DNA of 43,732 nt from Bacteroidales bacterium (lineage in GTDB: Bacteria > Bacteroidota > Bacteroidia > Bacteroidales > Bacteroidaceae). The notes under the pieces are model-generated. The model saw only the letters and a list, made by a program, of their open reading frames with translations, was not told where the DNA came from and did not search any database. Location: the NCBI GenBank assembly GCA_015060965.1, contig SUXN01000024.1, positions 1 through 43,732 on the forward strand, written 5' to 3'. This document shows, piece after piece, positions 17,125 to 37,530 of this stretch; the stretch's first letter is position 1; each line of letters begins with the position of its first letter. Made by a program: the position numbers and the translations under genes.

Positions 17125-17145
17125 AGTGATTTCTTTTATTTTTTC

Positions 17146-17176
17146 CAAAAATAGACATTTTGCCATAAAATGCAAA
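17146..17176 (-). promoter_or_regulatory. Promoter of the small lipoprotein gene
   Basis: On the minus strand, TTTG (17173-17176), 19 bases, TATTTTTG (17146-17153): an exact -33/-7 match with consensus spacing. It places the transcript start near 17139, about 15 bases before the chosen ATG, and so decides the start codon. Confidence 0.8.
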
Positions 17177-21186: not shown

Positions 21187-21188
21187 AA

Positions 21189-21676: not shown

Positions 21677-21734
21677 TTTATCTCAATGTCTATGGTTCAG
21701 TGAGTGTATCTTTTTTATCACTCCTCATTCTAAA

Positions 21735-21760
21735 GACGGAAAAAATGCAAATTTGTTACA
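21735..21760 (-). promoter_or_regulatory. ECF-type promoter of the sigma operon
   Basis: On the minus strand, TGTAAC (21755-21760), 16 bases, CGTC (21735-21738), followed by TTTA. The same arrangement, including AA after TGTAAC and TC before CGTC, occurs before two thioredoxin units at 33748-33773 and 37367-37392. The AAC/CGTC pair is the usual form of ECF sigma promoters and suggests autoregulation. The leader to the GTG start is about 50 bases. Confidence 0.7.
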
Positions 21761-22047
21761 AGCAAAACTGAAAAAAAATAAAAAAAGAAGGAAATTGATG
21801 AAAAAACACAGCTTCTAACATCAACAGACAGGGATGAATAAAAAAAATGGTTGCCTTACCGCAAAGGTAGAGCAACCACATATGGATACATTAGTTCTGT
21901 TGCGTGAAGAACGCATCATAGGAGTAGACCAATTTAAATCAATACGAGTTCCGATGAAGGCAAGCAATTTATCACAAATATGAGGAGCACACAACCTTGC
22001 ATTTTAATTAACCAGAGTTCGATATAAACTCAACCAAATCGCGGAAC

Positions 22048-22161
22048 TGTCATCCCGACAGAGCGAAGCGACGAGGGATCTCAAAATATCGCGAAATAAG
22101 AGATCTCTCACATTGACTTTAGCCCCTTCGGGCGTCGACCGTTGGTTCGCTCGAGATGACA
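22048..22161. repeat. REP-like repeat unit
   Basis: Begins TGTCATCCCGAC and ends TCGAGATGACA, so the ends are inverted repeats. The left half (22048-22103) is nearly identical to 43637-43693; the block 22113-22151 is identical over 39 bases to 18346-18384. The remainder of the gap between the sigma gene and the Fic gene (21761-22244) holds no credible frame. Confidence 0.88.
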
Positions 22162-22244
22162 AATACGCTAAATTGCAGTACTAATTGTTATATCAAACTC
22201 ACGTTTATTACATCTTTCTTTATAAGTTTTCATATACATATACC

Positions 22245-23354
22245 CTATAATTCCTCTTTAAGCAGGTAATTAGTGCTTCTTCCACCTTCGTTGGCTACCA
22301 CCAATATACCTTTCTCTATAAGGTCAGAAATATCACGCAAAGCCGTCGCTTGCGAAGTCTTTGTTATCTTTGCCCATTTCGAAGTATTGAGTTTGCCATC
22401 AAAGCCATCCCAAAGCATATTAACCACTTTAACTTGGCGGTCATTCATGGATATTTCTCGGCTTCTCTGCCAGAATGATGACTTTGCAACCACTCTTTTA
22501 ACTGTTACTTCAGAACGCAATATTGCACTACGCAGGGTCTGCAAGAACCATTCAAGCCAAGGAGTTATATCCGTAGTGCCCGTTGTGGTCTTCTCCAATG
22601 CCTCATAATACCCCTTACGCTCTCGCAATATCTCGGCTGACATACTGTAAAAACGATGAGGCATACCATCAGCCTTAGCCAATAACATATCTGTTATGGT
22701 GCGAGTTATACGGCCGTTCCCATCATCAAACGGGTGGATAGCAACAAACCACAGATGAGCAACGGCAGCTTTCAAGATTGGGTCTATGCCTTGTTCCTTA
22801 TTTATCCAATCCAAAAACTTATCCATCATTGCGGGTACAGCCTCCGATGCGGGTGCCTCATAGTGGACTTTCTCACGACCCATTGCACCCGATACAACCT
22901 GCATAGGTTCAGAGCCCACACGATAAGCAGCAACAGTGATTGGATGCATACCACTACGACCTGTTGGGAAAAGAGCTGCATGCCAGTTGAACAATCTATC
23001 ATGTGTCAAAGTCTGATTGCTATTACGCACAGCATCAAGCATTACTTGAACTACTCCCTCCGTATAATGGTCGGGTTCAGGTAGCCCCTCGGTATTAAGA
23101 CCAAGATGGCGGGCAATAGATGAGCGTACTCTATCGGCATTAAGTAGTTCTCCCTCAATCTCTGATGAGCGCAATACATCCTCTACCATCACATCAAGTG
23201 AGGTGGCATTTTGCACATTGAAACCAACGCCATCCATCAATCCGATGATGCGACCTTCGAGATTACGCACATCCGAAAGGAGTGTTATCAACCTCTCATT
23301 ATCCCATTTGAACTCCGCCCATGTAGGCTGTTGCCATATATATACTGCTCTCAT
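22245..23354 (-). CDS. Fic-family protein with DUF4172 domain and C-terminal winged helix
   Basis: 369 residues. N-terminal DUF4172-type domain (WQQPTWAEFKWD), then an inhibitory helix motif SSEIEGE (63-69) of the (S/T)xxxE(G/N) type, then the Fic core with HPFDDGNGRITR (207-218). His207 and the GNGR loop match active AMP transferases, which move AMP from ATP to a hydroxyl on a target protein; Glu67 would block ATP binding until relieved, so this is a self-inhibited class II Fic. The C-terminal 70 residues form a winged helix (TSKWAKITKTSQATALRDISDL), suggesting DNA binding and self-control. Alone, between repeats and a mobile-element remnant. The target is unknown. Confidence 0.93.
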   Translation of the reverse strand: MRAVYIWQQPTWAEFKWDNERLITLLSDVRNLEGRIIGLMDGVGFNVQNATSLDVMVEDVLRSSEIEGELLNADRVRSSIARHLGLNTEGLPEPDHYTEGVVQVMLDAVRNSNQTLTHDRLFNWHAALFPTGRSGMHPITVAAYRVGSEPMQVVSGAMGREKVHYEAPASEAVPAMMDKFLDWINKEQGIDPILKAAVAHLWFVAIHPFDDGNGRITRTITDMLLAKADGMPHRFYSMSAEILRERKGYYEALEKTTTGTTDITPWLEWFLQTLRSAILRSEVTVKRVVAKSSFWQRSREISMNDRQVKVVNMLWDGFDGKLNTSKWAKITKTSQATALRDISDLIEKGILVVANEGGRSTNYLLKEEL

Positions 23355-23570
23355 AATTGCGTTATTTAGTGCAAAGATAATGCAATGATGTGAAAAAACA
23401 AGCTATTCGCATCAAAATATGACGAGAATAACCCTTGTAATCACTTCACCTTATACCCAATACTTCCTCTGTGTTTAGAGACTCACAAACTACCATGAAC
23501 AACTAAAACCAACCAAATCTAAACTACTGAAATACAGACACTTTTAGAATTTAACACTTCAAGAACTGTT

Positions 23571-23628
23571 TTTGGTTGCTTCGGAAATTCCCTATAAATT
23601 TGCAACGTATTTCTACCGCAGGGAATTT
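23571..23628 (+). promoter_or_regulatory. Promoter of the HTH gene, flanked by an inverted repeat
   Basis: TTTG (23571-23574), 20 bases, TAAATTTG (23595-23602) is a near-perfect housekeeping promoter. The -7 element and start site lie between the arms of an inverted repeat, AAATTCCCT (23585-23593) and AGGGAATTT (23620-23628), a likely operator. The leader to the ATG at 23826 would be about 215 bases. Confidence 0.7.
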
Positions 23629-23647
23629 ACGAGGCTCTAATTTTGTC

Positions 23648-23752
23648 ATATCGTGGACATAGTTGACAAGGGTTTACCACAGGATACAAGAGTTGACAGC
23701 TTTTTGCCCCGCTTTTGCGAAAGGCAATATCGTGGGCATAGTTGACAAAGGT
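23648..23752 (+). repeat. Two 26-base direct repeats in the HTH gene leader
   Basis: Copies at 23648-23673 and 23727-23752 agree at 24 of 26 positions; both contain ATATCGTGG and CATAGTTGACAA. A third GTTGACA occurs at 23692-23698 between them. They could be binding sites for the HTH protein or for a recombinase that is no longer present. Confidence 0.8.
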
Positions 23753-23825
23753 CATCAATAGTTTACTTGTGATTACTTGCGGATAGGTACAACAAAAGGA
23801 ATGTTGAACCCATAAATATGCAAGT

Positions 23826-24404
23826 ATGCCAAGGACCAGAAAATGCGCTTACCGTGGCAAGGTTTTCACCACTAACAGCGGAATGCAGAGGTATTGTAGT
23901 GAAGAATGTGCCGAGAAAGCCAAACAGCAGAAGAAGGCTCGCCAGTGCGACTTCCTCAAAGCCACCGCACCCATCATGGATATTCAGGGGCGCAGAATAT
24001 CTCTCTTTTTCAAAGGCACCATCCTCATGGGCTGTTCACGACAGTACATCTACAAACTTGTAGCAGAGAACAAACTGCCGGCATCACGCATCAGTTCGCG
24101 AATGTCCTTCATCCGCAGAGCTGATATAGAGGCGATGCTTGCTGGCAATCCCTATCATCGTGTCTTGATTGGAACACAACAAAAGGAGAACAGGAAATAT
24201 GTCTCTGTACAGACACAGAACTTCTCTTCTCCCTCTTGTTCAAAATACACTCCCCAAGACGAAGTCCTTGACTATATCTCGGGTGAGGATGCCATGCGCA
24301 TCTACAAAGTAAAGAAGTTATGGCTCTATGCTTCTGCCAAGAGAAACAACATACCCATGTGTAGGATTGCATTCTCAATAAAAATGTGTATCTTTGTTGA
24401 ATAA
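23826..24404 (+). CDS. Excisionase-like HTH protein, 3' end replaced
   Basis: 192 residues. N-terminal small zinc-ribbon-like stretch (KCAYRGKVF, then YCSEECAEKAK), then a MerR/excisionase-type helix-turn-helix (LFFKGTILMGCSRQYIYKLVAENKLPASRISSRMSFIRRADIEAML), then a second similar unit (YISGEDAMRIYKVKKLWLYASAKRNNIPMCRIA). Proteins of this kind accompany tyrosine integrases in Bacteroidales mobile elements. From memory, relatives continue after MCRIA with GKNYYS-type residues and a further C-terminal part; here the frame changes abruptly to SIKMCIFVE and stops, with sequence that acts as promoter for the next gene. It is therefore probably a truncated remnant. No integrase is nearby. Confidence 0.75.
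   Translation: MPRTRKCAYRGKVFTTNSGMQRYCSEECAEKAKQQKKARQCDFLKATAPIMDIQGRRISLFFKGTILMGCSRQYIYKLVAENKLPASRISSRMSFIRRADIEAMLAGNPYHRVLIGTQQKENRKYVSVQTQNFSSPSCSKYTPQDEVLDYISGEDAMRIYKVKKLWLYASAKRNNIPMCRIAFSIKMCIFVE
24366..24396 (+). promoter_or_regulatory. Promoter of the AlbA_2 gene, inside the 3' end of the HTH gene
   Basis: ATTG (24366-24369), 19 bases, TATCTTTG (24389-24396): a good -33/-7 pair. It starts exactly where the HTH protein departs from its expected sequence, suggesting that the incoming DNA brought its own promoter. The start near 24403 rules out the TTG start at 24394 for the next gene and favours the ATG at 24424. Confidence 0.7.
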
Positions 24405-24423
24405 AACGAGAATTTTTTATAAA

Positions 24424-25809
24424 ATGGAATTAGATACTTTGATAGCAGAATGTACCGCATACGATTTCAAGGTGATGCTTGAAGAGAAGAAACCTAAGAG
24501 TTGGTTGAAAAGCGTAAGCGCTTTTGCAAATGGCTTGGGCGGTTCCCTTTTCTTTGGCATTGATAATGATGGCATCGTCAAAGGACTTGAAGATGTGCAG
24601 CATGTTTGCGAAGCTATCAGTAGTAAGATTCGTGACTATATGGATCCCCTGCCAGAGGTGGAAATGATTCCACATGCTATAGATGGTTTGCATATCTTGC
24701 AACTCAAAGTCAATTCAGGGCATTACACTCCATATTACTATGTTGGAGATGGTCAGCGTATTGCCTTTGTTCGCATCGGTGATGAAAGCGTACCTGCCAC
24801 AGCAGAGCAGATGGTTCGCTTGGTACTGAAAGGTTCTAATAAAACCTATGATTCCCTTCACACGGATTATAAATCTGAAGACTATGCTTTCACGATATTA
24901 GCGAATACTTTCAAAGACCGCACCAAGCAAGAATGGGACAAGAAGTATCTATTATCGTTTGGGCTGGTAACAGTTGCAGGTACCCTTACGAATGCAGGAG
25001 CACTGTTTGCCGATGATTGTCCTTTATGGCAATCCCGTCTTTATTGTACCCGATGGGATGGAACGGAAAAGGGCGACGCCATCAATGATGCAGAGTTTAC
25101 AGGTAATGTCCTCATGCTGCTCCGTGAAGCAATGAACTTTGTGAAGTCAAACACCAAGAGAGGCTGGGAGAAACTGCCTGATGGACGAAAGAATAAACCA
25201 GAGTATGCGGAACGTGCAGTTCTTGAAACAATGGTAAACCATTTCATCCATCGTGACTACACAGTGATGGGCAGTGAAGTTCATCTCGACATTTACAACG
25301 ATCGCCTCACAGTCACATCTCCAGGAGGAATGTACAATGGTATGCTGATTCAAGATTTAGACATCAAAGATGTGTCTTCTGAGAGACGTAATCCCATACT
25401 TGCAAACGTGATGGCTCAACTTGACTATATGGAGAAACGAGGAAGCGGACTCACACGCATTTGCAATGAGACCAAAGCCTTGGAAGGTTATAGGGACGAG
25501 CTAAAACCCAAGTTCAAATCCACTCCGACCCAATTCCAAACCATCATCTTTGCCTCTTCCGACACCCCGAATGTCGGAGACTATGACGGAGACATGTCGG
25601 AGACGAAACTCACTGAGCGTCAGCAGAAAATACTTAATCTCATCAAAGAGTCTCCGACAATCACCGGCAAACAAATGTCGGAGACTTTGTCGGTGAGCCA
25701 GCGCACCATCGAACGCGACCTTTCTGCATTGAAAAAAATTGGTGTTTTGAAACGCGAAGGCAAGGATAATAGTGGTGTGTGGATAGTAATTATAATTGAT
25801 AAATGTTGA
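24424..25809 (+). CDS. AlbA_2 (Schlafen-type) ATP-binding regulator
   Basis: 461 residues from the ATG at 24424 (MELDTLIAEC). N-terminal AlbA_2/Schlafen domain with KSVSAFANGLGGSLFFGI and G-x-x-x-GL, then a middle domain, a histidine-kinase-type ATPase-like C-terminal region (FIHRDYTVMGSEVHLDIYNDRL, then SPGGMYNG and RRNPILANVMAQLDYMEKRGSGL), and a winged helix (LTERQQKILNLIKE, then SVSQRTIERDLSALKKIGVL). This is the COG2865 architecture, annotated as transcriptional regulators or RNA/DNA-binding ATPases; many lie in mobile or defence islands. The true substrate is unknown. Carries its own promoter; next gene 161 bases on. Confidence 0.88.
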   Translation: MELDTLIAECTAYDFKVMLEEKKPKSWLKSVSAFANGLGGSLFFGIDNDGIVKGLEDVQHVCEAISSKIRDYMDPLPEVEMIPHAIDGLHILQLKVNSGHYTPYYYVGDGQRIAFVRIGDESVPATAEQMVRLVLKGSNKTYDSLHTDYKSEDYAFTILANTFKDRTKQEWDKKYLLSFGLVTVAGTLTNAGALFADDCPLWQSRLYCTRWDGTEKGDAINDAEFTGNVLMLLREAMNFVKSNTKRGWEKLPDGRKNKPEYAERAVLETMVNHFIHRDYTVMGSEVHLDIYNDRLTVTSPGGMYNGMLIQDLDIKDVSSERRNPILANVMAQLDYMEKRGSGLTRICNETKALEGYRDELKPKFKSTPTQFQTIIFASSDTPNVGDYDGDMSETKLTERQQKILNLIKESPTITGKQMSETLSVSQRTIERDLSALKKIGVLKREGKDNSGVWIVIIIDKC

Positions 25810-25825
25810 TTTTCAGAAGACACAT

Positions 25826-25885
25826 AGCATATGGTTGCTTTCAGTAACATAATGCATTCATTAAATATACCATGCTCCATATGCT
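25826..25885 (+). other. Inverted repeat after the AlbA_2 gene
   Basis: AGCATATGG (25826-25834) and CCATATGCT (25877-25885) are perfect inverted repeats of nine bases with a 42-base loop, 17 bases after the stop. No T tract follows, so this may be an operator or element end rather than a terminator. Confidence 0.4.
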
Positions 25886-25970
25886 TCTTTGAAAGAACAA
25901 TGTAAATGACCTTCTCGCTTGCTTTTACAAGTGGGGAGCTATTGACCAACTAAATGTTATATTTTAAACT

Positions 25971-26426
25971 ATGGCATACGAATACAAGAAACATACGATG
26001 GTGGATGGCAAGAAATATGGTCCATCGCCAGGTTACAAATATTACCAACCTGCAGGATATCATAATCCTGTGAAAAAAGTACATAATAAAGGACGTAAGG
26101 CTAAAAAGGCTGAGCATGAGGATAAGACACATTGGATACTCAACAAGTCTCAACAATATGATGTCTTTCTTGAAGGTGAATCAAATGATTTTATTGATCA
26201 AAGTGGCATCTTCTCTCTTCTTGACAATTGCAATGAAATATTAGGTCAAGATGGAGAACGGTTGGCAATTTTTGAAACTCCAATGAATGTCAATGACGCA
26301 TGGCATGGTTATCCATTTTTTAGTAAGGATGAATACAAACTTACTGATGAAATGGTTGATAAGTTTAAGGAAAAAGAGAAGATAAGCATTGCTAACTATA
26401 CAAGATTATTATCTCGTAAGATATGA
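25971..26426 (+). CDS. Small protein of unknown function, first of a coupled pair
   Basis: 151 residues, not recognised. The first 50 residues are basic and rich in Lys, Tyr and Pro (KKYGPSPGYKYYQPAGYHNP, then KKVHNKGRKAKKAE), probably flexible and nucleic-acid- or partner-binding. The rest looks folded, with the motif DAWHGYPFFSKDE followed by two helices ending NYTRLLSRKI. No signal peptide or membrane helix. Its stop overlaps the next start (ATGA at 26423-26426), so the two proteins are made together and probably interact. Base composition is clearly more AT-rich than the flanking genes, a sign of transfer. Confidence 0.7.
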   Translation: MAYEYKKHTMVDGKKYGPSPGYKYYQPAGYHNPVKKVHNKGRKAKKAEHEDKTHWILNKSQQYDVFLEGESNDFIDQSGIFSLLDNCNEILGQDGERLAIFETPMNVNDAWHGYPFFSKDEYKLTDEMVDKFKEKEKISIANYTRLLSRKI

Positions 26427-27754: not shown

Positions 27755-28015
27755 AGATTCTACAAATGGATGGGATAACAAACAACTGTGAAGATAGCCT
27801 TATGTTGTATACGTACTGCCGTTAATGAATACCCTTACAAACAGCATTTTTGCAATATTCGCGTTACTCTAATAAAAGTTAAAAACGTTAAACTTTCCCA
27901 TTTTCTGTTTTCTGTAGAATCTACGTCACCGCTTTTCTACCGTTTAAAATGTAAATATCTGATTGAAAGAGACTTGCAAATACTGATAATGTCATTTAAA
28001 GAAGCACAGTCAAAT

Positions 28016-28588
28016 TCAACCATAAAGAAAAGCATAGTACCACATCAGCATAAAATTGGCTACAATCAGCAGGCATAAAGCAAGAGCAGTGCCAATAGTC
28101 CAAGCTATCTTCTTTTTTCTACCCTCTTTTTCAAAAACTGCAAAATGAATCAAATAGCGGTCATTCTTCCAATATACCAATTCACCTACAATCCATGAAG
28201 GAACAATTCCCAAACCGACAACAAGGAGCAAGTGCCTTCCTACAATGTCATATGCTTGTGGCCCATAGCAAATCATCCAAATATTAATCACCAAATAAAA
28301 AGGTAAAGCAAACAACAGCAATGCAAGACCGGTCAGACAGTATAGTGTAAACCCCGATGCAGGGTGGTCTAAGGTCTTATACAACCCACTTCTCGTCCAA
28401 TCCTTGTATTCCTTGAATGAATTAATCCCGTATTGCTTTTTCAAATGTCTCTTCCAGAAGGGCAAACAATACAACGGTCGTTGCACCAATAATTCAACTG
28501 CTGCATATATAGGTAATCCGGAGAAATACATCAGATTGTACAACGAGTACAACAACCTGTTCAAGAATTTGTCTATATTGTCTCTCAT
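28016..28588 (-). CDS. Integral membrane protein, last gene of the thioredoxin operon
   Basis: 190 residues with about four hydrophobic helices (near 15-35, 78-105, 118-140 and 160-185) and a basic cytoplasmic loop (FWKRHLKKQYG). Family not recognised. It starts two bases after the stop of the 674-residue thioredoxin gene, so it is tightly coupled to it; a role in electron supply or transport for the thioredoxin-like proteins is possible, but no cysteine pair typical of CcdA/DsbD is present. The region 27755-28015 downstream holds only a short TTAAAAACGTTAA inverted repeat and no clear terminator. Confidence 0.7.
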   Translation of the reverse strand: MRDNIDKFLNRLLYSLYNLMYFSGLPIYAAVELLVQRPLYCLPFWKRHLKKQYGINSFKEYKDWTRSGLYKTLDHPASGFTLYCLTGLALLLFALPFYLVINIWMICYGPQAYDIVGRHLLLVVGLGIVPSWIVGELVYWKNDRYLIHFAVFEKEGRKKKIAWTIGTALALCLLIVANFMLMWYYAFLYG

Positions 28589-28590
28589 TT

Positions 28591-30615
28591 CTATTCTTTC
28601 TTCAACGCTTTTATGAGGTTTTCTAAAGCATCAAGGTTACGAGGGTCGGCATTGACATCGAGCAAATTTCCGTTGCGGTCGATGAGCCTGTATGTGGGGT
28701 AACTGTTTACTCTGAGGAAACGCTCCACAGCACTCTGCTGCTCGCCGGGCAGATTGTAGTGTACCACGTTGTCGCCTGTGACATTGTACTCCTTTATTAC
28801 ATTTTTCCAGCTATCCTCATCGCTGCGGTTGGCAAGGTAAAGGAACACCATATCATACGGCGCCATTCTCTCATACAGTTCCTTACTGTGCGAAAGAGCC
28901 CGTTTGCAGGGACTGCACCATGTTCCCCACACATCGACCAATACAAACTTGCCTTTGTATGGCTCGATGAGCTTGCGTAGAATCTTCTCACCGTCGCTCA
29001 TGTCCTTAACCTCGTCGTTGGTTTTCAGGCTTTCGCCACCTGATAGCGCACGATGTTGCAAAGCAAGATATCTGTTCTGCATCTCCAGCACTGTGTTTAT
29101 TGCAGCCGGTGTCGATATATTCTTCTCTGCCCACTCTATCACATCTGCCGGTAGGGGAATGCGGCGGTTGTTTATTTCGTTCCAGATGATTCCGGCCATA
29201 TAAATATCGTATATCTCCTTGTTGTTTGGCAGACTGCTTATCGCATGCTGCGGAATTTTGACAGCAAATTCCCTTATTATTGCATCGGCATTACTGTTCC
29301 ACACATCGTTTATAATATACACGATTTCACTATTATTGAATTCGCTTATAAGTTTTTCTCTCTCCGCGTCATCGTCAAGTGTTGCAAGTTGTGCCTTCAT
29401 CTTTTCAAGTTCACTGTCGTAACTATTCACAGCACAGGCCTGTTTCTCATCGAGCGAGATTGTTCCACATGCTGCAAGACGTTGCAATGTCTTTCCCACA
29501 GCGCCTTCCTGTTCTGGCATATTCTCTACTTTATAATTCATATAATCCGTCAAGAAACGGAGATAGTCGCGATAGAGGCTTTTTGGACTGCGCAACATTG
29601 AAAATCCATCGGTAGATAATGGTGCAATCATACTGTTCCAAAGAGAGTCGGCAAAAGCAATATATTCCGCCGGCAGTTTGTCGCCTTCAACACAGTACAT
29701 CCCCTGCATAAGGCTCTCGCCCATCCCTGCACAATAATAGCCTGTGAGATAGTCGATATATCGGCGCGACAACATGGGGTGCTCCTCTACTCTCTTTTGC
29801 AGTTCGGCATTATATCGACGTCCGCACTCCTTTACGTGCTGCAAGAACTCCATAGCCTGCTCCTGCGTGGCAGGGTCGTGCTCTATGCGCTCGTTCATAA
29901 ATGAAGCCGGATAGGCTGTCAACTCATTTTGCAGGCGCACATCATTGCCCATAAAGAGTTTCTGCCCAGTGCAGAAATCGTGGAGAAAGAAATATGTCTC
30001 CCCCGGCTCAAATACAGTACTTACCAATGACCTTTTCCAATCAACAAACACCTGCGAGGTGTTCTGTAACGGCATTTTTAGTGTGAAACGTCCCAAGGAA
30101 TCCATTTTTGCATACAATGACAAACCGCCGGGTTCGCGTGTAACAACATTATGTACCATTACCTCAAACTCTTTTCCGCCTCTTTGCAAGGCCTCGGCAG
30201 GCATATCCTTTAGCCAGCCGATTATTGTAACACTGTCGCCCATTCGGTAGCCGTTGTCCTTGAAGCCTACGCGATTGTCCTTAATAGGATAATCGGGCAA
30301 TGTGGCAGTGGTTATTGGGCTGCACTTTACCACCAATGAACCGCCTACTTTGATTGTGCGTGTGCCTTTCTTCATCTTGCCCACCTTGATGTCGAGCACC
30401 TCATTGCCGTTCCCAACGGTGAGTATATAACCGCCACGCTTCTCTGTCATTGACTTTATATCCCAAAAGCGTGAATCGTAGATAACCTGTTTTTCGGCAA
30501 AGCCTATCAGCCAATCGCCTGTGGCATTGTTACGCCAATAGGTGTTTGCTATTTCCTGTGCAAAGCCACATACGGTGGCAATGGCAACGATTAAGGTTAA
30601 AAATAGTTTTTTCAT
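28591..30615 (-). CDS. Secreted TlpA-like thioredoxin-domain protein (WCSPC)
   Basis: 674 residues from the ATG at 30615 (MKKLFLTLIVAIATVCGFAQ, signal peptide); an ATG three codons upstream is less likely. N-terminal module with YWRN-x-x-TGDWLIGF (about 25-110), a central module with TIIGWL, a LGRFTLKMPL strand and EPGETYFFLHD, a long helical region, and a C-terminal thioredoxin fold with WCSPC at 566-570, cis-Pro in SYPTYRLID. This is the TlpA/ResA disulphide-reductase family acting in the periplasm. The same modules occur in the 800-residue paralogue at 34101. Third of a four-gene operon, 25 bases after the 612-residue gene. Confidence 0.88.
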   Translation of the reverse strand: MKKLFLTLIVAIATVCGFAQEIANTYWRNNATGDWLIGFAEKQVIYDSRFWDIKSMTEKRGGYILTVGNGNEVLDIKVGKMKKGTRTIKVGGSLVVKCSPITTATLPDYPIKDNRVGFKDNGYRMGDSVTIIGWLKDMPAEALQRGGKEFEVMVHNVVTREPGGLSLYAKMDSLGRFTLKMPLQNTSQVFVDWKRSLVSTVFEPGETYFFLHDFCTGQKLFMGNDVRLQNELTAYPASFMNERIEHDPATQEQAMEFLQHVKECGRRYNAELQKRVEEHPMLSRRYIDYLTGYYCAGMGESLMQGMYCVEGDKLPAEYIAFADSLWNSMIAPLSTDGFSMLRSPKSLYRDYLRFLTDYMNYKVENMPEQEGAVGKTLQRLAACGTISLDEKQACAVNSYDSELEKMKAQLATLDDDAEREKLISEFNNSEIVYIINDVWNSNADAIIREFAVKIPQHAISSLPNNKEIYDIYMAGIIWNEINNRRIPLPADVIEWAEKNISTPAAINTVLEMQNRYLALQHRALSGGESLKTNDEVKDMSDGEKILRKLIEPYKGKFVLVDVWGTWCSPCKRALSHSKELYERMAPYDMVFLYLANRSDEDSWKNVIKEYNVTGDNVVHYNLPGEQQSAVERFLRVNSYPTYRLIDRNGNLLDVNADPRNLDALENLIKALKKE
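28604..28683 (-). repeat. 80-base near-identical block, copy 1
   Basis: Encodes the last residues of the 674-residue protein (DRNGNLLDVNADPRNLDALE region). It differs from 34105-34184 at a single base, while the adjoining coding sequence has diverged strongly. The sharp edge suggests gene conversion. Confidence 0.9.
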
Positions 30616-30640
30616 AGGTGTCACACAATATACATCATTC

Positions 30641-32479
30641 TTATTCCTTCTCCAGTTCCTCTTTAAGTACAGTTACCATCTTGTTGATGTCGCGAAGGTC
30701 GTTGCGCAGCGAGAAAGTACCATCCTTCTTTACAAGTACATACGAAGGAATGCCATCAATGTCAAACAATTTGCTTGTCAGATAGTCCCTTTGTGTTTCA
30801 TTGACACGATAATGTATGCCTTTGATGTTGGGAATCATCTCGGAATATGTTCCTATGGGCGATGTCTCACTTGCAATATATATCCACACGATATTATCGC
30901 TGGCAAGGGTACCGTTCTTATGTGGTTCAATCTCTTTAATTGCTTTACGGCAAGGTCCGCACCAAGTATTCCAGAAATCCACCAGTATGACCTTACCCTT
31001 GTGAGGGGCAATGATAGCCTGAAAGAGTGCTTCGGGAGCGATATCCTCTACATGCTCCAAGTCCTTGCTGCTATTTGCAATGGATTCCCTTGTACAGCGA
31101 AGAATTTCCTCGCACATATCGGCATAGAATGAGTTATTCCAAGAGCGCATTGTTTGCAGTTCGGCATCGGTGAGTTCGTTCTTATAGGCTTTCTCCACTG
31201 CACCACGGGCTTTACCCCAGCAAGCAAGCGTACTGTCTGTGCTGCCGGGCTGCATTTTCTGTGCCGCTTTTGCAACCTCCTCACTTCTGTCATTCATCAG
31301 CAGCCAAGGATTCTCGATGTCAACACATGCGAACATGCGTGCATAATGCTCAGGCAATATCGGGTCGTGCTTATAGTCGGCAGGAACACTGCTTTCACGT
31401 TCCGCCCAGCGCCTATAGTCTTGGTTGAGAAAAACAAGACAGACATTGAATGCATCGGCTTTGCACATCTCCTTTGCCCAAGAACCGGACTTCTGCGCAT
31501 CGGCATGCTCGCACACGGCACGGTAGAAATCTATTAGTGCGCCGGTAAATTCATCGGCAGTCATATCGTAGCGGATGAATTCATCTATCAGCAAAGAATC
31601 GGACAATGCTATCACATCTTCGGAGTCACGGTTGTTCAGCACATCATATACACTTCCTTTGGTCCAGCACCCCTTTACTGCAAGGTTCTTGTAGTTCTCA
31701 TAATTGTACTGCAATGTCTGGTTGATGTAGGCAAGGTTCACAAAAAGATCTACTGTTTCATTAGGCGCAATAAAGAACTGCCCATACCCGCAGCCATTGA
31801 CAACGGGAAAAGCACATCCTGTGCCATATTGCATGAATGTTACACTGCCTGTACCTGTTGCCGGGTCTATCTCAACATCAATGCTACGCTGCCCCTCAAA
31901 CATAGAGTTTACAGGAAATACCATGTCGGTGACGCATCCCTCTCGATAGCCCATCAGGTGGATATTTACCGTTGTCTCTCCAAATGTGTAGGCATACTCC
32001 GGTGTGTCACTTGCCTCTTTGGAGGTATGCTTCAGTTCACATGGCAGCCCCGTGGGGTTAGCCAAATTCCTTTTCCCTGTGAGGTCAATATCGTACACAC
32101 GCCAACCGTCTTTTGCACCGACATCAATAAAATCAAACTCACTGCATGTATTGGACAACGGCTCAAAGGTTAGAGTAAAGCATGAATCGCCATCCTCGGG
32201 CATAAACAACTCTTTGCCAAGTTCAACGCCATTACTGCCAATCAGTTCATATTCCTTATCTTGGGTTACAAGATGGATGTTCGGAGATACTTTAATCCAG
32301 TGTTCGGGAGCGAAACCACGTACCGTCAGCACAGTAGCAGTATCGGTCAGTTCCACCTTCTCAAAGACCAGTTTCGTTGTATTTGAGGCACCGACAAGTG
32401 GGAATTCGAGCACTTTGTTTTTGCTTGCGCAAGAGACCAGCAATAGCCCCAGCAGAAGGAACTTCAATGTCTTTTTCAT
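30641..32479 (-). CDS. TlpA-like thioredoxin-domain lipoprotein (WCGPC)
   Basis: 612 residues. Lipoprotein signal with lipobox LVSC (Cys17). An N-terminal module (about 30-135: FAPEHWIKVSPNIHLVTQDK, then GVELGKELFM and FEPLSN) matches the N-terminus of the 800-residue protein at 34101. A middle helical region and a C-terminal thioredoxin fold follow, with WCGPC at 506-510 and cis-Pro in GIPSYVLV. A periplasmic, membrane-anchored thiol reductase of TlpA type is inferred. Second gene of the operon, 32 bases after the 392-residue gene. Confidence 0.88.
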   Translation of the reverse strand: MKKTLKFLLLGLLLVSCASKNKVLEFPLVGASNTTKLVFEKVELTDTATVLTVRGFAPEHWIKVSPNIHLVTQDKEYELIGSNGVELGKELFMPEDGDSCFTLTFEPLSNTCSEFDFIDVGAKDGWRVYDIDLTGKRNLANPTGLPCELKHTSKEASDTPEYAYTFGETTVNIHLMGYREGCVTDMVFPVNSMFEGQRSIDVEIDPATGTGSVTFMQYGTGCAFPVVNGCGYGQFFIAPNETVDLFVNLAYINQTLQYNYENYKNLAVKGCWTKGSVYDVLNNRDSEDVIALSDSLLIDEFIRYDMTADEFTGALIDFYRAVCEHADAQKSGSWAKEMCKADAFNVCLVFLNQDYRRWAERESSVPADYKHDPILPEHYARMFACVDIENPWLLMNDRSEEVAKAAQKMQPGSTDSTLACWGKARGAVEKAYKNELTDAELQTMRSWNNSFYADMCEEILRCTRESIANSSKDLEHVEDIAPEALFQAIIAPHKGKVILVDFWNTWCGPCRKAIKEIEPHKNGTLASDNIVWIYIASETSPIGTYSEMIPNIKGIHYRVNETQRDYLTSKLFDIDGIPSYVLVKKDGTFSLRNDLRDINKMVTVLKEELEKE

Positions 32480-32511
32480 ATTGTATGCCAGATTTCAGGT
32501 TTTACTTACAA

Positions 32512-33690
32512 TTATTCCACAATGCCGCTCAGATGTTCCAGAATGACTCCTTCGCCATAGCCACACCATTGCTCTAAAATATATCCGTCGGGAGAGATAA
32601 GGACAAAAAGCGGTATACCGTCTCTGTCGCTACGGTAACGTGCATAGAGAGCACTGCCGCTATAGCCGTCATTCCAGTTGTACCAAGAAACGGGATGTTC
32701 TTTAAGCGCCTCGCGCCATACCTCTTCCGACTCAAGGTTTACACTCACTACACATAGCTTGTCCTTGTACATCCTGGCAACTACGGCAAGTTCCGGAAGT
32801 GCTTTCACGCAGGGGCCGCAGCCGTTGGCCCAAAAATCGAGCAGAATATATTTGCCTTTCAGTTCGGCAAGGGTATGCTTCTTCCCATCAAGGTCAATCA
32901 TCTCGCCATCAATGGCCTTCTTGCCGCTCTGTGCCTGCTCTTGAGGATAGAGATTAACATAGGCCTTTTTGGCAAGATAATGACTGCGTTGCTCAGTCGT
33001 CAGGCCTCCATACAGCTGTCTCAACTCATCGGTATACGTGAAATCCTTGATATTTTGCATGCAGAGTGTCGCAAAATAGAACCTATCCATCCATATGTCA
33101 TCAACAACGGTCTGTTTCATTATTGACAAATCATTTGCACATATACGCAGTTTCAAGGAGTCGAGTTCGCCATTAATCCGTTGTATACACTCAACCGCCC
33201 TCTCATCCGTATTCCCCTTTGCACTCAAGCTTCTCGCTTCGGCCGAGAGAGACTCATAACATTTCCACTCCTCAAATGATTTCTTGATGTATCTTCCCCA
33301 AACCGTATTCTCTGGTGCAGGGCCTGTAACTTTCCAGGTATACATCAGTTTGTCTTCACCCTCCACAAGGACACAATCACCGGCCGAAGCCCACAAAGGT
33401 GTCACCAGCATTGAAAAGCCCTCGTTAATAAAACCTCCTAAAGCCAGTTTTTCACAATCATCACTCTCGGCAACCAACTTGAAGTAGAACTCACCATTAG
33501 AGATTGTATCGTTGCCGACAACAACGCCATAGTCGGTATTGAATCTCATCAGACACAGCACCGTACCGTCGGGCACATTCTTTACTTTGCCCTTAATCTC
33601 ATAGAACCCAGGATTTACAAGGTCGCCATCCTGCGCAATGCCACACAGAGTGGCAAATGCAAATAAAATGGTAAATAATCTCTTTTTCAT
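32512..33690 (-). CDS. Secreted TlpA-like protein with DUF4369-type N-terminus (GCGPC)
   Basis: 392 residues with a signal peptide (MKKRLFTILFAFATLCGIAQ). Residues 28-130 form a DUF4369-like beta domain (G-x-V-K-N-V-P-D-G-T-V-L, then DTISNGEFYFKL). The C-terminal thioredoxin fold has FWANGCGPC: the CGPC pair (291-294) is intact but the usual tryptophan before it is Gly290. A cis-Pro is present in GIPLFVLIS. The tryptophan change should alter redox behaviour but leaves both cysteines. First gene of the operon, preceded by the ECF-type promoter and the palindromic operator. Confidence 0.88.
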   Translation of the reverse strand: MKKRLFTILFAFATLCGIAQDGDLVNPGFYEIKGKVKNVPDGTVLCLMRFNTDYGVVVGNDTISNGEFYFKLVAESDDCEKLALGGFINEGFSMLVTPLWASAGDCVLVEGEDKLMYTWKVTGPAPENTVWGRYIKKSFEEWKCYESLSAEARSLSAKGNTDERAVECIQRINGELDSLKLRICANDLSIMKQTVVDDIWMDRFYFATLCMQNIKDFTYTDELRQLYGGLTTEQRSHYLAKKAYVNLYPQEQAQSGKKAIDGEMIDLDGKKHTLAELKGKYILLDFWANGCGPCVKALPELAVVARMYKDKLCVVSVNLESEEVWREALKEHPVSWYNWNDGYSGSALYARYRSDRDGIPLFVLISPDGYILEQWCGYGEGVILEHLSGIVE

Positions 33691-33747
33691 ATTGTGTTTT
33701 GTTTTTCAGTTTAAATTTCAAATGCAATCATGTCATTTCAATTATAA

Positions 33748-33773
33748 GACGGACAAGCGCCCCAATTGTTACA
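33748..33773 (-). promoter_or_regulatory. ECF-type promoter of the four-gene thioredoxin operon
   Basis: On the minus strand, TGTAAC (33768-33773), 16 bases, CGTC (33748-33751), then TTATA. Together with the copies before the sigma operon and at 37367-37392 it shares TTGTAACAA and TCCGTCTTA. The expected start lies about 48 bases before the ATG at 33690. Confidence 0.7.
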
Positions 33774-33813
33774 GGCGAAATAAGGGAAAATTTCACCCCT
33801 CGCGAAAAAATAA

Positions 33814-33861
33814 ATCTAAAAACAGCTCTTTAGACGTCTAAAAATGATGTTTTAGATTTTT
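33814..33861. promoter_or_regulatory. Palindromic operator block, copy 1
   Basis: Contains TCTAAAAACAGCTC, then the perfect palindrome TTTAGACGTCTAAA (33829-33842), then TTTTAGATTTTTAAA: three or four TCTAAA/TTTAGA half-sites. The first 29 bases are identical to the block at 37479-37508. It lies about 55 bases upstream of the -35 part of the ECF promoter, where an activator would bind. Confidence 0.65.
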
Positions 33862-33965
33862 AAAGACCAGAAAGTTCTTAATAATGGAATTTGTCTCATA
33901 TTGGTAAATCTGTTAGTTATTATTTGTTGTTCTACCGCAAATTTATCCCGGGAAAAGTTTTCCAC

Positions 33966-34003
33966 GAAAAAAGCGAGCTACAAACTTCAATCTGTAACTC
34001 GCT
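33966..34003 (-). terminator. Terminator of the 800-residue thioredoxin gene
   Basis: Stem AGCGAG/CTCGCT extended past one mismatch by TACA/TGTA (33972-34003). On the minus strand it is followed by TTTTTTC. It lies about 100 bases after the stop at 34101. Confidence 0.8.
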
Positions 34004-34100
34004 GATTATGTGGGTAATAAACAAAAATTAGTTTTCCTTTGCAAAGAGGAGTATTCAAAAAGTTTACCCGTGCTCATTTTTGAGCAGCCTTTTCATGTAA

Positions 34101-36503
34101 TTACAACGCTTTTATAAGGTTTTCTAAAGCATCAAGGTTACGAGGGTCGGCATTGACATCGAGCAAATTTCCGTTGCGGTCGATAACCCTGTATGTGGGA
34201 AAACCTTTTACTTTAAGGTATGCCTCCACCGCCGACTGCTGCTTACCGGGCAGGTTGTAATGGTAGACATTCTCGCCGGTCACCCCATACTCCTTGATTA
34301 CACTCCTCCAACTCTCTTGGGAACTTCTGTTGGCAAGATACAGGTATGCTACGTTATACTTATTAAGCCGTTCATACTCCTCTTGTGAGCGAGCAAGTGC
34401 ATCTATACAAGGTCCACACCAGCTGCCCCATACATCAATGATTACTACCTTTCCCTTCAATGGCTCAAGCAGCTTGCGCAGAATATCCTCTCCCTCGGCA
34501 ATACCTGCCACATCATCATTGCTAAGCAGGCTCGAAGGAAAACGCATCTCGCTATCCAATATTGCAATACGCTTGTCGTTCTCATTTATAATGCTTGCCT
34601 TAAACGGCTCCATAGTTATATTCTCTTCAATATATTGCAAGGCAAGGGGTGAGAGAGATTCTTTGTTATGTTCAAGCTGCTTATGCAAACAATGTACTGC
34701 AAGAATCTCTTTCAGTACGCGGTTATATCCCAGCGATTCGGTTACATTCATCACAGCATACAGCTGCATCATAGACAATTCGGCACTGATGATATTCATG
34801 AAGCCATCCCTTTGAAGAATACTTTTTGCCTGCATTGACAATTCCGATTCATAGAACTCTTTTTCACGTCTGTTGCGTTCCTCGGTACCGGGAATGTTTT
34901 CCAATTCTCTGTAAAGAAGATGAGATGCCTCTGCCCACTCCTCTATGACAACAAGTTCCTCATCCGTAATCTCAATCTTGCCGGCATCACGGTAACGCTC
35001 CAATATATACGGGAATATCCTGTCGTATTTAATCATCCTATTTCCATTGTCATCAACCACGTAAGCGTATTCCTGGTTCTTCAGAAAACTTGCCACGTCC
35101 CATAACGCCGTGCCGTAGTCACGACAGAAAGTATATGCCGGTTCGGGGAGTGTCTCTTGCAATTGGTGCACGAAATCCATATACTCGTTTGTCACTCTCC
35201 GCTCCTTGAATGAATAACCTGCCTGTGTCATAGCCGCGGCAAACTGGCATCTTTGGTTGCCTCCTACGGTCCGGATGTATCTTTCCGAAAGTGTCGGATG
35301 CTCCTCAAGCAGTCTTGCAAAACGTGCTTCTGCCTCCTTCAGTTCCGGCAGGTACTTCTCCATTACTTCGGTAGCCGTTATTTTGCCGGCATCTTCGTAA
35401 CCAATATCGAATCCGCACCATGGTATCGGATGTGCAAGTATCTCGTTCTGCAGGCGTGCATTCTTGCCCATAAAAAGCTTATGGCCCTTTTCAAGGTCAT
35501 AAAGCAAGAAATATGTCTCGCCCGGTTCTATGATATTACGAATGAAAGAAATATTCCAGTCCATTAGGACCTCAGAGGTGTTCAGTAACGGAATCTTTAT
35601 GGTGAAACGCCCAAGCGAGTCCATTGCCGCAAAGAATATCTCCTCTTTACCCTTAAGGATGTTCTCTAAAATTACCCCGTACCGGCCGTTTACCCTTTCC
35701 ATTTTATATTTTGGAACGCCCCTGAGCCAACCTGTCAATGTTACAGTGTCAACCTGTTGGTAACCGTTGTCCTTCAGCTTGGATATGGTGTCCTTCTGAG
35801 CATAGTCGGGCAAAGTGATGGTGCTTATAATTTCATACTCGCACTTTCTTTTGCCTATGGTTATGTTTCGACGGCCGTGCCTGTTCTTGCCAACCTTCAC
35901 GGCAAGTTCCTCACCGTTACACTCCAACAGGAATTCATACTTGTCGCCTCTCTGCTTGCGTTCCTTGTAATTCCAGAAACGGCAATCGTATATTACATTT
36001 TCGTTGTAAAAAGCGATTTCCCAATCGCCGTTCTTTGTATTCCGCCACGCTGTGGGGAAAAGGTCTGTTGCCTTTGTCGCAGCACTCTCCACTCCCAAGA
36101 TACAGTAATCGCCTTCGGCATCACCCTCCTTGAAGTCGAACTTTCTTGTATTGAGTGGGAGCGGTTCAAAGTGAAATACCACATCGGCATTGCCGTTGTC
36201 GGTAAGAAATGTCTCCTTGTCAAGTTCAAGCCCGTCACAACTGCGTACTGCATATATCTTGCCATCGGCCTGCAGATACGTACCTTGCGAAAAACGCAAC
36301 CAACTATCGGGACGACGGGATAGGTGCATATATACACGTGTCTCATCCTTGGTGAATTCAACGCGTGTTATTTCGGCAAGCGTAGAGACAAATCCCTCTA
36401 TAAGGCAGTTCCTGTCAACAGCAGGATTCTCCCATACCTTCTCCTGTGCAAAGCCACATACGGTGGCAAATGCGACAATGAGGGTTAAAAATAGTCTTTT
36501 CAT
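34101..36503 (-). CDS. Secreted mosaic TlpA-like thioredoxin-domain protein (WCGPC)
   Basis: 800 residues with a signal peptide (MKRLFLTLIVAFATVCGFAQ). Built from parts of its neighbours: residues 30-150 match the N-terminal module of the 612-residue lipoprotein (DSWLRFSQGTYLQADGKIY, GLELDKETFL, FEPLPL). Residues about 153-380 match the two N-terminal modules of the 674-residue protein (AWRNTKNGDWEIAF, TLTGWL, LGRFTIKIPL, EPGETYFLLYD). The C-terminal thioredoxin fold has WCGPC at 695-699 and cis-Pro in GFPTYRVID. It follows the 241-residue gene by 98 bases. Periplasmic thiol chemistry is inferred from the family; substrate unknown. Confidence 0.88.
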   Translation of the reverse strand: MKRLFLTLIVAFATVCGFAQEKVWENPAVDRNCLIEGFVSTLAEITRVEFTKDETRVYMHLSRRPDSWLRFSQGTYLQADGKIYAVRSCDGLELDKETFLTDNGNADVVFHFEPLPLNTRKFDFKEGDAEGDYCILGVESAATKATDLFPTAWRNTKNGDWEIAFYNENVIYDCRFWNYKERKQRGDKYEFLLECNGEELAVKVGKNRHGRRNITIGKRKCEYEIISTITLPDYAQKDTISKLKDNGYQQVDTVTLTGWLRGVPKYKMERVNGRYGVILENILKGKEEIFFAAMDSLGRFTIKIPLLNTSEVLMDWNISFIRNIIEPGETYFLLYDLEKGHKLFMGKNARLQNEILAHPIPWCGFDIGYEDAGKITATEVMEKYLPELKEAEARFARLLEEHPTLSERYIRTVGGNQRCQFAAAMTQAGYSFKERRVTNEYMDFVHQLQETLPEPAYTFCRDYGTALWDVASFLKNQEYAYVVDDNGNRMIKYDRIFPYILERYRDAGKIEITDEELVVIEEWAEASHLLYRELENIPGTEERNRREKEFYESELSMQAKSILQRDGFMNIISAELSMMQLYAVMNVTESLGYNRVLKEILAVHCLHKQLEHNKESLSPLALQYIEENITMEPFKASIINENDKRIAILDSEMRFPSSLLSNDDVAGIAEGEDILRKLLEPLKGKVVIIDVWGSWCGPCIDALARSQEEYERLNKYNVAYLYLANRSSQESWRSVIKEYGVTGENVYHYNLPGKQQSAVEAYLKVKGFPTYRVIDRNGNLLDVNADPRNLDALENLIKAL
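34105..34184 (-). repeat. 80-base near-identical block, copy 2
   Basis: One mismatch to 28604-28683 over 80 bases, covering the 3' end of the thioredoxin coding sequence up to the last codons. The stop differs: here the frame ends after IKAL, whereas the other copy runs on for KKE. Confidence 0.9.
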
Positions 36504-36601
36504 AAGTATTTTATAATTACAATCTGCAACAAATGTAGAAATAAAGGATAAGAGCCTTACCCCCGTTAATATTTGTTAAAAAATGCATTTATTCGCATCG
36601 A

Positions 36602-37327
36602 TTATTCAAATTTTACTCCAATTACGAAATAGTGCGGCGAGTGTTTTAATATGTCACTACTCATATCCGCAGGTATTTTTGTCTCGCCACAGAGGCGGTA
36701 TGTTTCATATTTCTCATCCCACCAGGGAGCTGCATAGAGAACAAGCGGAATAAACTTCCCCTTTTCAAAACCATCAATTATGAAAGGTCTTGTACTATAA
36801 TCAAGTTTGCGATGTGATTTATCTACACGGCAGTCACGCAACATCAGTAGCCTGCGAGCACCTCCCATCAGCTCCTTTCCTGCAACCTCGAATTGTACCC
36901 TCTGTCCCATGTCCATATTTACAGGAGTAAAGCCTATCTTCAATCGTGTTGCAAGACGGAAGATATCATTCTCCTCGTCATCGGCAATTGCCGACGCCAT
37001 TATCACTTTTTGCTCATCCTCACTGAATTCGCTTAATCTACGGATTAATTCAAATACTGATGAACGTGAACGCGAATCACCTACTTCCACCAAATTACCG
37101 TTCACATATTCCTTTACACAGAATTCAACATACGTTGCCTTGTCTTTCAATGTCGAAATATCATAGACAAACATATTATATCCTGCCTGTTGCAACAGTG
37201 ACAGATAATCGTCAAACGTCGCAACCAATTGGTAGTCTTCAAACTTTGTGTCAGCACTCTTGATTTCCTGTGCAAAGCCACATACGGTGGCAAATGCGAC
37301 AATGAGGGTTAAAATTAGTCTTTTCAT
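36602..37327 (-). CDS. Secreted protein, possibly DUF5041-like
   Basis: 241 residues with a signal peptide (MKRLILTLIVAFATVCGFAQ) whose DNA is almost identical to that of the 800-residue gene. The mature part has LLQQAGYNMFVYDIS, YVEFCVKEYVNG, a FSEDEQKVIMASAIAD stretch and LKIGFTPVNMD. This resembles a small Bacteroidales family I recall as DUF5041, but I am not sure of that name. Function unknown. First gene of the two-gene unit behind the ECF-type promoter at 37367-37392. No thioredoxin motif. Confidence 0.7.
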   Translation of the reverse strand: MKRLILTLIVAFATVCGFAQEIKSADTKFEDYQLVATFDDYLSLLQQAGYNMFVYDISTLKDKATYVEFCVKEYVNGNLVEVGDSRSRSSVFELIRRLSEFSEDEQKVIMASAIADDEENDIFRLATRLKIGFTPVNMDMGQRVQFEVAGKELMGGARRLLMLRDCRVDKSHRKLDYSTRPFIIDGFEKGKFIPLVLYAAPWWDEKYETYRLCGETKIPADMSSDILKHSPHYFVIGVKFE

Positions 37328-37366
37328 ATAATCTAATTATGTTTTAACAATATACTTTTACTATAA

Positions 37367-37392
37367 GACGGACAAACCGCCTGTTTGTTACA
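37367..37392 (-). promoter_or_regulatory. ECF-type promoter of the two-gene unit
   Basis: On the minus strand, TGTAAC (37387-37392), 16 bases, CGTC (37367-37370), then TTATAG. Spacing and flanks agree with the copies at 21735-21760 and 33748-33773. The leader to the ATG at 37327 would be about 30 bases. Confidence 0.7.
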
Positions 37393-37478: not shown

Positions 37479-37530
37479 ATCTAAAAACAGCTCTTTAGAC
37501 GTCTAAAAAGTTGATTTTAGATGTCTAAAA
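37479..37530. promoter_or_regulatory. Palindromic operator block, copy 2
   Basis: Holds TCTAAAAACAGCTC, the perfect palindrome TTTAGACGTCTAAA (37494-37507), and a second imperfect palindrome TTTTAGATGTCTAAAA (37515-37530). It lies between the 241-residue gene and the divergent membrane regulator, close enough to control both. Its first 29 bases are identical to copy 1 near 33814. Confidence 0.7.

What the first reader, a model, noticed from the sequence alone, without database searches (positions are those of the whole stretch)
21735..37392. One ECF-type promoter in three places links a sigma locus to two thioredoxin units
The sequence TGTAAC-N16-CGTC, with identical flanks (AA after the first box, TC before the second, TT after it), occurs at 21735-21760, 33748-33773 and 37367-37392, in each case 30-50 bases before a start codon and on the coding strand. 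It was not found elsewhere in a non-coding position of the window. The first copy precedes an ECF sigma operon, the others the two units of secreted TlpA-like proteins. This predicts a regulon for envelope thiol stress controlled by the local sigma factor or a paralogue.
Basis: partly seen in the sequence, partly recalled or inferred. Interest (0 to 1): 0.72.

Follow-up and report, generated by a model that had tools for sequence, protein, structure and literature searches.

The report
Sigma-factor regulon of secreted thioredoxin genes
In what appears to be an uncultured gut Bacteroidaceae bacterium, one stress-type promoter sits in front of a sigma-factor operon and of clusters of secreted thioredoxin-like proteins, and it seems to travel together with the start of the secreted protein as a swappable block.

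Summary
The extended motif TGTAACAA-N12-TCCGTCTT occurs 3 times in the window (0 in 100 shuffles) and 7 times in the 2.59-Mb genome, none at one mismatch; 2-3 mismatches is control level. The bare core is background (13 vs 16). One site heads the sigma/anti-sigma/DUF4252 operon, five head thioredoxin/DUF5041 genes, one a decayed copy. In the genus the motif (<=3 mismatches) precedes the sigma gene in 23 of 30 loci; a matrix from 22 foreign sigma promoters scores all six targets above 30 background sites. This is an autoregulated ECF regulon, broader than thiol stress: relatives carry the motif before OmpH, TonB-C and outer-membrane barrel genes. The window's sigma gene is frame-broken; relatives are intact. 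New: promoter, 5'UTR and signal peptide form a near-identical DNA block ending at +62 nt, and blocks and products reassort. A palindrome, in this genome only before five of the six target promoters, suggests a second regulator, the divergent ToxR/CadC-like gene 37603-38670.

The parts
21733..21760 (-). ECF-type promoter of the sigma operon (TGTAACAA-N12-TCCGTCTT)
21488..21676 (-). sigma gene, first piece: GTG start and region 2 (Pfam Sigma70_r2, 28.5 bits over cut-off 24); leaves the frame of the second piece near 21527
21189..21527 (-). sigma gene, second piece in another frame: region 4 (Sigma70_r4_2, 30.6 bits over cut-off 25.7); best NCBIfam match GFO_1088/PG0214 family ECF sigma
20599..21192 (-). 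anti-sigma factor, 197 aa, one membrane-spanning stretch by eye
20064..20591 (-). secreted DUF4252-like protein; 8 of 9 orthologues scanned match PF14060 at E<=0.002 (the window copy itself does not)
18476..20041 (-). 521-aa protein with a signal peptide by eye, downstream in the same orientation, no family found
33746..33773 (-). ECF-type promoter of thioredoxin unit 1
33629..33856 (-). promoter/5'UTR/signal-peptide block shared with C2, C19a and C19b (alignments of 474, 890 and 228 bp); all three end at +62 nt of the coding sequence
32512..33690 (-). TlpA-like protein, CxxC
30641..32479 (-). TlpA-like protein with a different (lipoprotein-like, by eye) leader, CxxC
28591..30624 (-). TlpA-like protein with the shared leader, CxxC
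28016..28588 (-). 190-aa membrane protein (by eye) at the end of unit 1, no Pfam family
37365..37392 (-). ECF-type promoter of unit 2
36602..37327 (-). DUF5041 protein with the shared leader
34101..36503 (-). TlpA-like protein with the shared leader, CxxC
33828..33843 (.). palindrome TTTAGACGTCTAAA, candidate operator, 70 bp upstream of the promoter motif
37493..37508 (.). palindrome TTTAGACGTCTAAA, candidate operator
37515..37530 (.). second palindrome TTTTAGATGTCTAAAA
37603..38670 (+). divergent membrane-anchored winged-helix regulator (OmpR/ToxR/CadC-type DNA-binding domain at the C end)

Best explanation
The motif is the promoter of an autoregulated ECF sigma factor of the PG0214/GFO_1088 type, encoded in a sigma/anti-sigma/DUF4252 operon. 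When envelope stress releases the sigma from its membrane anti-sigma, it transcribes its own operon and a small regulon. In this genome that regulon is six further promoters: five in front of secreted CxxC thioredoxin-fold and DUF5041 genes and one in front of a decayed copy. Across the genus the motif also stands before OmpH, TonB-C, outer-membrane barrel and small lipoprotein genes, so the output is envelope maintenance with an enlarged thiol-redox branch. The promoter is inherited as one DNA block with the 5'UTR and the signal-peptide codons, and blocks have recombined with different genes. Shown: motif, its specificity, conservation at the sigma locus, target genes, block boundaries. Inferred: sigma binding, release by stress, the stress itself.
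For: 7 exact genome matches and none at one mismatch. Motif (<=3 mismatches) before the sigma gene, 538-744 bp before the anti-sigma match, in 23 of 30 loci (30 of the 39 anti-sigma matches came with loci), against about 0.2 expected from the rate (my arithmetic). A matrix from the 22 sigma promoters of other genomes scores the six own targets 23.8-31.1, and the 30 two- and three-mismatch sites at most 18.0. None of 11 other scanned PF08281 loci of this genome has it. 11 of 23 Thioredoxin_8 matches lie in the three motif-headed clusters. In relatives 12 of 36 non-sigma sites have a thioredoxin-fold frame within 6 kb downstream on the same strand (profile from 20 of the 23 own matches), against about 3% from the density (my arithmetic, clustering ignored). 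Genomes with the sigma promoter more often have other sites: 15 of 23 vs 6 of 21, Fisher p 0.019.
Against: The sigma gene of this very genome is frame-broken. The co-occurrence falls to p 0.14 (12 of 23 vs 6 of 21) when the three TGCAAC sites of G039, G042 and G043 are dropped, and 6 of 21 genomes without a detected sigma promoter still have sites. 7 of 30 sigma loci lack the motif: five (G013, G028, G035, G031, the second G023 locus) look by eye like other sigma types, but G007 looks like the main type; G025 is cut by a contig end (no tree was built). Two targets (C2, window 33746; 23.8) score just under the lowest training site (24.1). Only 4 of 14 DUF5041 homologues in the genus, two of them in this genome, have the motif (<=3 mismatches) next to the gene; two of the other ten had under 500 bp of upstream DNA. 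No transcript data.
Confidence: 0.8

Rival explanations
1. A paralogous ECF sigma, not the local one, recognises the motif; the local sigma is a dying gene that keeps only its promoter.
For: The local sigma is split over two frames. The genome has other ECF loci, among them a related one on C59. The C27 sigma has a TGTAAC-N16-CGTC core before its own gene, with other flanks. Six genomes without a detected sigma promoter still have sites.
Against: No other scanned locus carries the extended motif (best 4 mismatches; one frame, L058, was doubtful); the C27 site scores 14.6 against 23.8-37.5 for the seven sites. In relatives with an intact gene the motif sits at this sigma. The first sigma piece shows 4 synonymous and 0 amino-acid changes in 49 codons against G006, so the break may be recent or an assembly error; the second piece (32 and 23 in 110 codons) does not speak clearly.
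Confidence: 0.13
2. The repeat is mostly duplicated DNA: copies of one gene start, kept similar by recent descent, with no regulatory meaning.
For: Four of the seven sites lie in one block, 96% identical over 474 bp, 93% over 228 bp and 84% over 890 bp to the window copy.
Against: The sigma, 37365 and C19:11189 sites have different spacers and different surroundings yet the same 16 fixed bases; the sigma promoters of 22 other genomes have the motif too.
Confidence: 0.05
3. The motif is the binding site of another transcription factor rather than a sigma promoter.
For: A second regulator is encoded divergently at two target units.
Against: That regulator has its own candidate operator, absent from the sigma promoter; the motif has fixed two-box spacing, stands 18-63 nt before the chosen start in 16 of 27 genes and precedes the sigma gene in 23 of 30 loci.
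Confidence: 0.03

Closest known systems
PG0214-PG0215-PG0216 locus of Porphyromonas gingivalis (SigCH, by recall); NCBIfam GFO_1088 / GFO_1090
   Same: ECF sigma, anti-sigma and DUF4252 gene in a row; PG0214-PG0218 rise together in a PG_0686 mutant (passages of PMC10101095).
   Different: SigCH is reported to regulate cdhR and hmuYR (title of a reference seen), not thioredoxin clusters; no promoter motif seen in the passages.
EcfO-Reo with the NigD regulon (Bacteroides fragilis, Phocaeicola vulgatus)
   Same: Small ECF regulon for envelope or oxidative stress in Bacteroidales (passages of PMC13114119).
   Different: Reo spans both membranes and targets are NigD lipoproteins; here the anti-sigma is a 197-aa protein with one membrane span by eye, and targets are thioredoxin-fold proteins. 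The EcfO promoter paper is not held.
CirY-CirZ with Spy (P. vulgatus)
   Same: ECF pair that raises its own transcription and is followed by a secreted protein (passages).
   Different: Gene 3 is Spy there and DUF4252-like here; the strongest targets there are the neighbouring genes.
SigH-1 of B. thetaiotaomicron
   Same: ECF sigma with putative thioredoxins among co-expressed genes (passages of PMC12596196).
   Different: Put in group ECF114 by that paper, with a -30/-10 box like the B. thetaiotaomicron non-canonical motif.
ToxR / CadC-type membrane-anchored activators
   Same: Predicted structure of 37603-38670 ends in an OmpR/ToxR/CadC winged helix.
   Different: Here the DNA-binding domain is at the C end after a second membrane span, with the extracytoplasmic domain before it (spans by eye).
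Bacteroides invertible promoters and shufflons (BT1927 S-layer, nutrient receptors)
   Same: Promoter regions that act on alternative surface proteins (passages of PMC12548429; leader swapping in shufflons is recalled, not seen).
   Different: Those use DNA inversion; here all 12 leader copies on C2, C5 and C19 point the same way on their contig.

Membership tests
ECF sigma, GFO_1088/PG0214 family | Sigma-70 regions 2 and 4 | tested here: met
   Each piece passes its Pfam cut-off on its own
ECF sigma, GFO_1088/PG0214 family | Score over the NCBIfam cut-off | tested here: inconclusive
   Best family for the region-4 piece, 65.8 bits against cut-off 130, but only 101 aa were given
ECF sigma, GFO_1088/PG0214 family | Intact reading frame | tested here: not met
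   Two frames in this assembly; intact in relatives
sigma/anti-sigma/DUF4252 operon | Anti-sigma next to the sigma | tested here: met
   29 of 44 genomes have an anti-sigma match; in 30 of 30 loci examined a sigma-like frame, in places partial, ends within about 90 bp of it
sigma/anti-sigma/DUF4252 operon | DUF4252 gene downstream | tested here: met
   8 of 9 orthologues at E<=0.002, two of them over the cut-off; the window copy alone gives no match
autoregulated ECF regulon | Same promoter at the sigma gene and targets | tested here: met
autoregulated ECF regulon | Transcription depends on the sigma | not testable with these tools
   No transcript or mutant data
EcfO-Reo | Anti-sigma spanning both membranes; NigD targets | tested here: not met
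   197 aa, one membrane span by eye, other targets
SigR/RsrA thiol-stress system | Zinc anti-sigma motif HxxxCxxC (recalled) | tested here: not met
   Not seen in 20 of the 30 anti-sigma loci, aligned; two cysteines about 23 residues apart, present in 16 and 19 of 20
ToxR/CadC-type regulator | OmpR-type winged helix with membrane span | tested here: met
   Foldseek probability 1.00 to PcoR, CadC, SaeR, ToxR and OmpR domains, E 1.8e-4 to 1.6e-3; Pfam Trans_reg_C 20.0 bits, below cut-off 26.2
invertible promoter/leader switch | Copies in inverted orientation | tested here: not met
   All 12 leader copies on C2, C5 and C19 lie on the - strand; a recombinase was not looked for

The most novel reading that the evidence does not exclude
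The ECF promoter, 5'UTR and signal-peptide codons form a recombining cassette that recruits different secreted proteins into one sigma regulon. The crossover point is a 30-bp stretch coding the end of the signal peptide, conserved as DNA across species, so a gene can change its promoter type and keep its product, or take on the regulon in one step. On the thioredoxin units a second, species-specific palindromic operator and a divergent membrane-anchored winged-helix regulator add a second input that the sigma operon itself lacks.
Probability: 0.45. Interest if true: 0.72.

Novelty: new variant of a known kind. Interest (0 to 1): 0.62.

Why it matters
It gives a concrete, testable promoter code for a DUF4252-type ECF sigma of Bacteroidaceae and ties it to secreted thioredoxin-fold proteins whose role is unknown. 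If the cassette reading holds, it shows how a regulon can grow by moving promoter and export signal together, rather than by point changes in each promoter.

Tried and rejected
Rejected: the bare core as evidence (background). Rejected: whole-gene duplication as the sole origin of the copies. Rejected: the lipoprotein at 16576-17175 as a window member; its likely homologues (by eye) carry the motif in G024, G031 and G037, but nothing better than 6 mismatches lies in the 400 bp upstream of it. Not supported: plasmid carriage of the block (no match in 72,556 plasmid records). Led nowhere: a first clustering of 5' regions that linked sites through the motif itself, replaced by 5'UTR identity. Weak: cysteine sensing by the anti-sigma. 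Dropped or not given before counts: 9 of the 39 anti-sigma matches had no locus, PF08281 matches L059 and L060 of 14, one sigma site and one duplicate of 38 rows, and 3 of 23 thioredoxin matches left out of the profile, 11 of the 42 non-sigma sites were not given, 6 of the 33 rows (two sigma sites, four without a usable start), 10 of the 30 anti-sigma loci.
Full report
What was checked. The bare core is not informative. The extended motif is: 7 exact matches in 2.59 Mb, none with one mismatch, then 3 with two and 27 with three; the total of 37 is no higher than the reversed control of 42. Over 44 genomes of the genus, 55 matches at <=1 mismatch stand against 5 control matches. The four copies outside the window are at C2:9699, C19:4210 (C19a), C19:6969 (C19b) and C19:11189 (C19c).

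What follows the sites. In the window: a sigma operon (21676 down to 18476), a thioredoxin unit (33690 down to 28016) and a DUF5041/thioredoxin unit (37327 down to 34101). On C2 and C19 the same kinds of genes follow, except that C19:11189 precedes a copy with stops. 11 of the genome's 23 Thioredoxin_8 matches (E<=0.001) lie in these three clusters, and all 11 proteins keep a CxxC. That each cluster is one transcript is inferred from the short gaps.

Which sigma. Region 4 of the window sigma is closest to the GFO_1088/PG0214 family, region 2 is recognised in the piece before it, and the order sigma, anti-sigma, DUF4252 is that of PG0214-PG0216 (passages of PMC10101095). Of 30 loci with a related anti-sigma, 23 have the motif at <=3 mismatches before the sigma gene. 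Of the other 7, five look by eye like other sigma types, one (G007) looks like the main type, and one is cut by a contig end (no tree was built). A matrix from the 22 foreign sigma promoters scores the own sigma promoter 37.5 and the six targets 23.8-31.1; its own training sites score 24.1-38.6 and the 30 two- and three-mismatch sites at most 18.0. Of 12 PF08281 loci scanned in the own genome only the window's carries it (one other frame was doubtful). The C27 sigma has the same core with other flanks, which helps explain why the core alone is not specific.

The broken frame. The sigma start and region 2 lie in one frame, region 4 in another. Against G006 the first piece has 4 synonymous and no amino-acid changes in 49 codons; the second has 32 and 23 in 110. 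The first piece suggests a recent break or an assembly error; the second is not telling. Intact copies exist in relatives.

How wide the regulon is. In relatives 36 non-sigma sites at <=1 mismatch were examined; 12 have a thioredoxin-fold frame within 6 kb (less DNA was held for many), and five more run off a contig after a leader or start shared with such genes (L171, L144, L152, L094, L179). Others precede OmpH (G036, G037), a TonB-C protein with the shared leader (G041), an outer-membrane barrel (G006), CotH (G024), a PGA_cap gene (the TGCAAC site of G039, probably chance) and small lipoproteins. The rest were not classified. The own-genome two-mismatch site C3:44787 precedes a CarboxypepD_reg protein like the start of the G006 barrel protein, so it may be an eighth member, but its matrix score, 17.1, is within the background. 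Genomes with the sigma promoter have other sites more often (15 of 23 vs 6 of 21, p 0.019; p 0.033 without the own genome; p 0.14 without the TGCAAC sites).

The cassette. Between the 33690 gene and its counterparts on C2, C19a and C19b, DNA identity runs through promoter, 5'UTR and signal-peptide codons and stops at +62 nt in all three comparisons, while the upstream ends differ (474, 890 and 228 bp). Beyond that point DNA identity falls to chance. Among 27 motif-headed genes of the genus, 27 pairs share a 5'UTR class (single linkage at 75%), and 25 of these show no blastp link over the first 200 residues after the leader; several of these proteins still share a C-terminal thioredoxin domain, so 'unlike' refers to that stretch, and only the DUF5041 partner is wholly different. 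20 pairs share a product family with different 5'UTR classes; ten of these are clear swaps (product identity 48% or more, 5'UTR identity 0.51 or less), for example 98% identical DUF5041 proteins on C2 and in G024, while some of the others reflect start choice or drift. The last 30 bases of the leader recur in 42 distinct contexts in the loci held (<=4 mismatches; 12 exact). In the own genome the leader is found 12 times on C2, C5 and C19 and, weakly, on C50 and C63. Cautions: repeats of this kind can mislead short-read assembly, and the 27 sites were selected for carrying the motif. The check not selected for the motif, with DUF5041, found it next to 4 of 14 homologues, so membership varies between copies of one product.

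A second input. TTTTAGACGTCTAAA (<=1 mismatch) occurs in the own genome at six places (12 matches on both strands, control 1), all 70-138 bp before the motif of five of the six target promoters, and not at the sigma promoter or the decayed copy. Four of these five are copies of one block, so the independent cases are that block, the 37365 promoter (two palindromes) and G016. Among 44 genomes it is found only here and once in G016, again 70 bp before a motif site; the reversed control has 19 matches over the 44 genomes against 14, so it is the place next to the motif, not the number, that counts. It lies between unit 2 and the divergent gene 37603-38670, and the same holds on C19. That gene has two membrane spans by eye and a C-terminal winged helix, closest in fold to PcoR, CadC, SaeR, ToxR and OmpR domains. 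Relatives of it stand divergent to a motif-headed unit in 4 of 17 loci looked at (own C5 and C19, G002, G029), without this palindrome in the last two. That the regulator binds the palindrome is inference.

Literature. Passages only were read of PMC12596196, PMC13114119, PMC9723704, PMC7366714, PMC13088901, PMC12548429 and PMC10101095; the EcfO promoter paper is not held. Searches showed, in the titles and abstracts they listed (20 of 37, 2 of 2, 5 of 5, 1 of 1 and 8 of 817 papers), no report that ties this motif or a DUF4252-type sigma to thioredoxin clusters; searches (10 of 36, 8 of 24, 8 of 28) none of a promoter/signal-peptide cassette of this kind. The two papers were not opened. F. psychrophilum has an ECF-type CGT-box motif linked to a sigma/anti-sigma pair (passages), so ECF promoters with this kind of -10 are known in the phylum.

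Verdict. Thiol stress is part of a wider envelope reading. The cassette and the second operator are the parts that would surprise a specialist.

Noticed in passing
window 21488-21676 and 21189-21527: The ECF sigma gene is split over two frames in this assembly while relatives have it intact.
   Followed up: partly
window 33828-33843, 37493-37530: Palindrome TTTAGACGTCTAAA, in this genome only upstream of the target promoters; candidate operator of a second regulator.
   Followed up: partly
window 37603-38670: Membrane-anchored winged-helix regulator with paralogues on C19 (82%) and C34 (43%).
   Followed up: partly
L171 and window 30641-32479: The first 75 residues of a thioredoxin-lipoprotein gene in G008, another species of the genus, are identical by eye to the window gene, and there it has its own motif promoter; possible recent transfer or binning error.
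   Followed up: no
L022 (G000:C3:44787-44814): Two-mismatch motif before a CarboxypepD_reg protein whose G006 counterpart has a one-mismatch site; possible eighth regulon member, though its matrix score is at background.
   Followed up: partly
L011/L012 (G000:C27:100716-100793): Two facing TGTAAC-N16-CGTC cores with other flanks before a second ECF sigma; probably that sigma's own promoter type.
   Followed up: no
window 16576-17175: Small lipoprotein whose likely homologues in G024, G031 and G037 carry the motif although this copy does not.
   Followed up: partly
window 22245-23354: Fic/DUF4172 protein upstream of the sigma locus.
   Followed up: no
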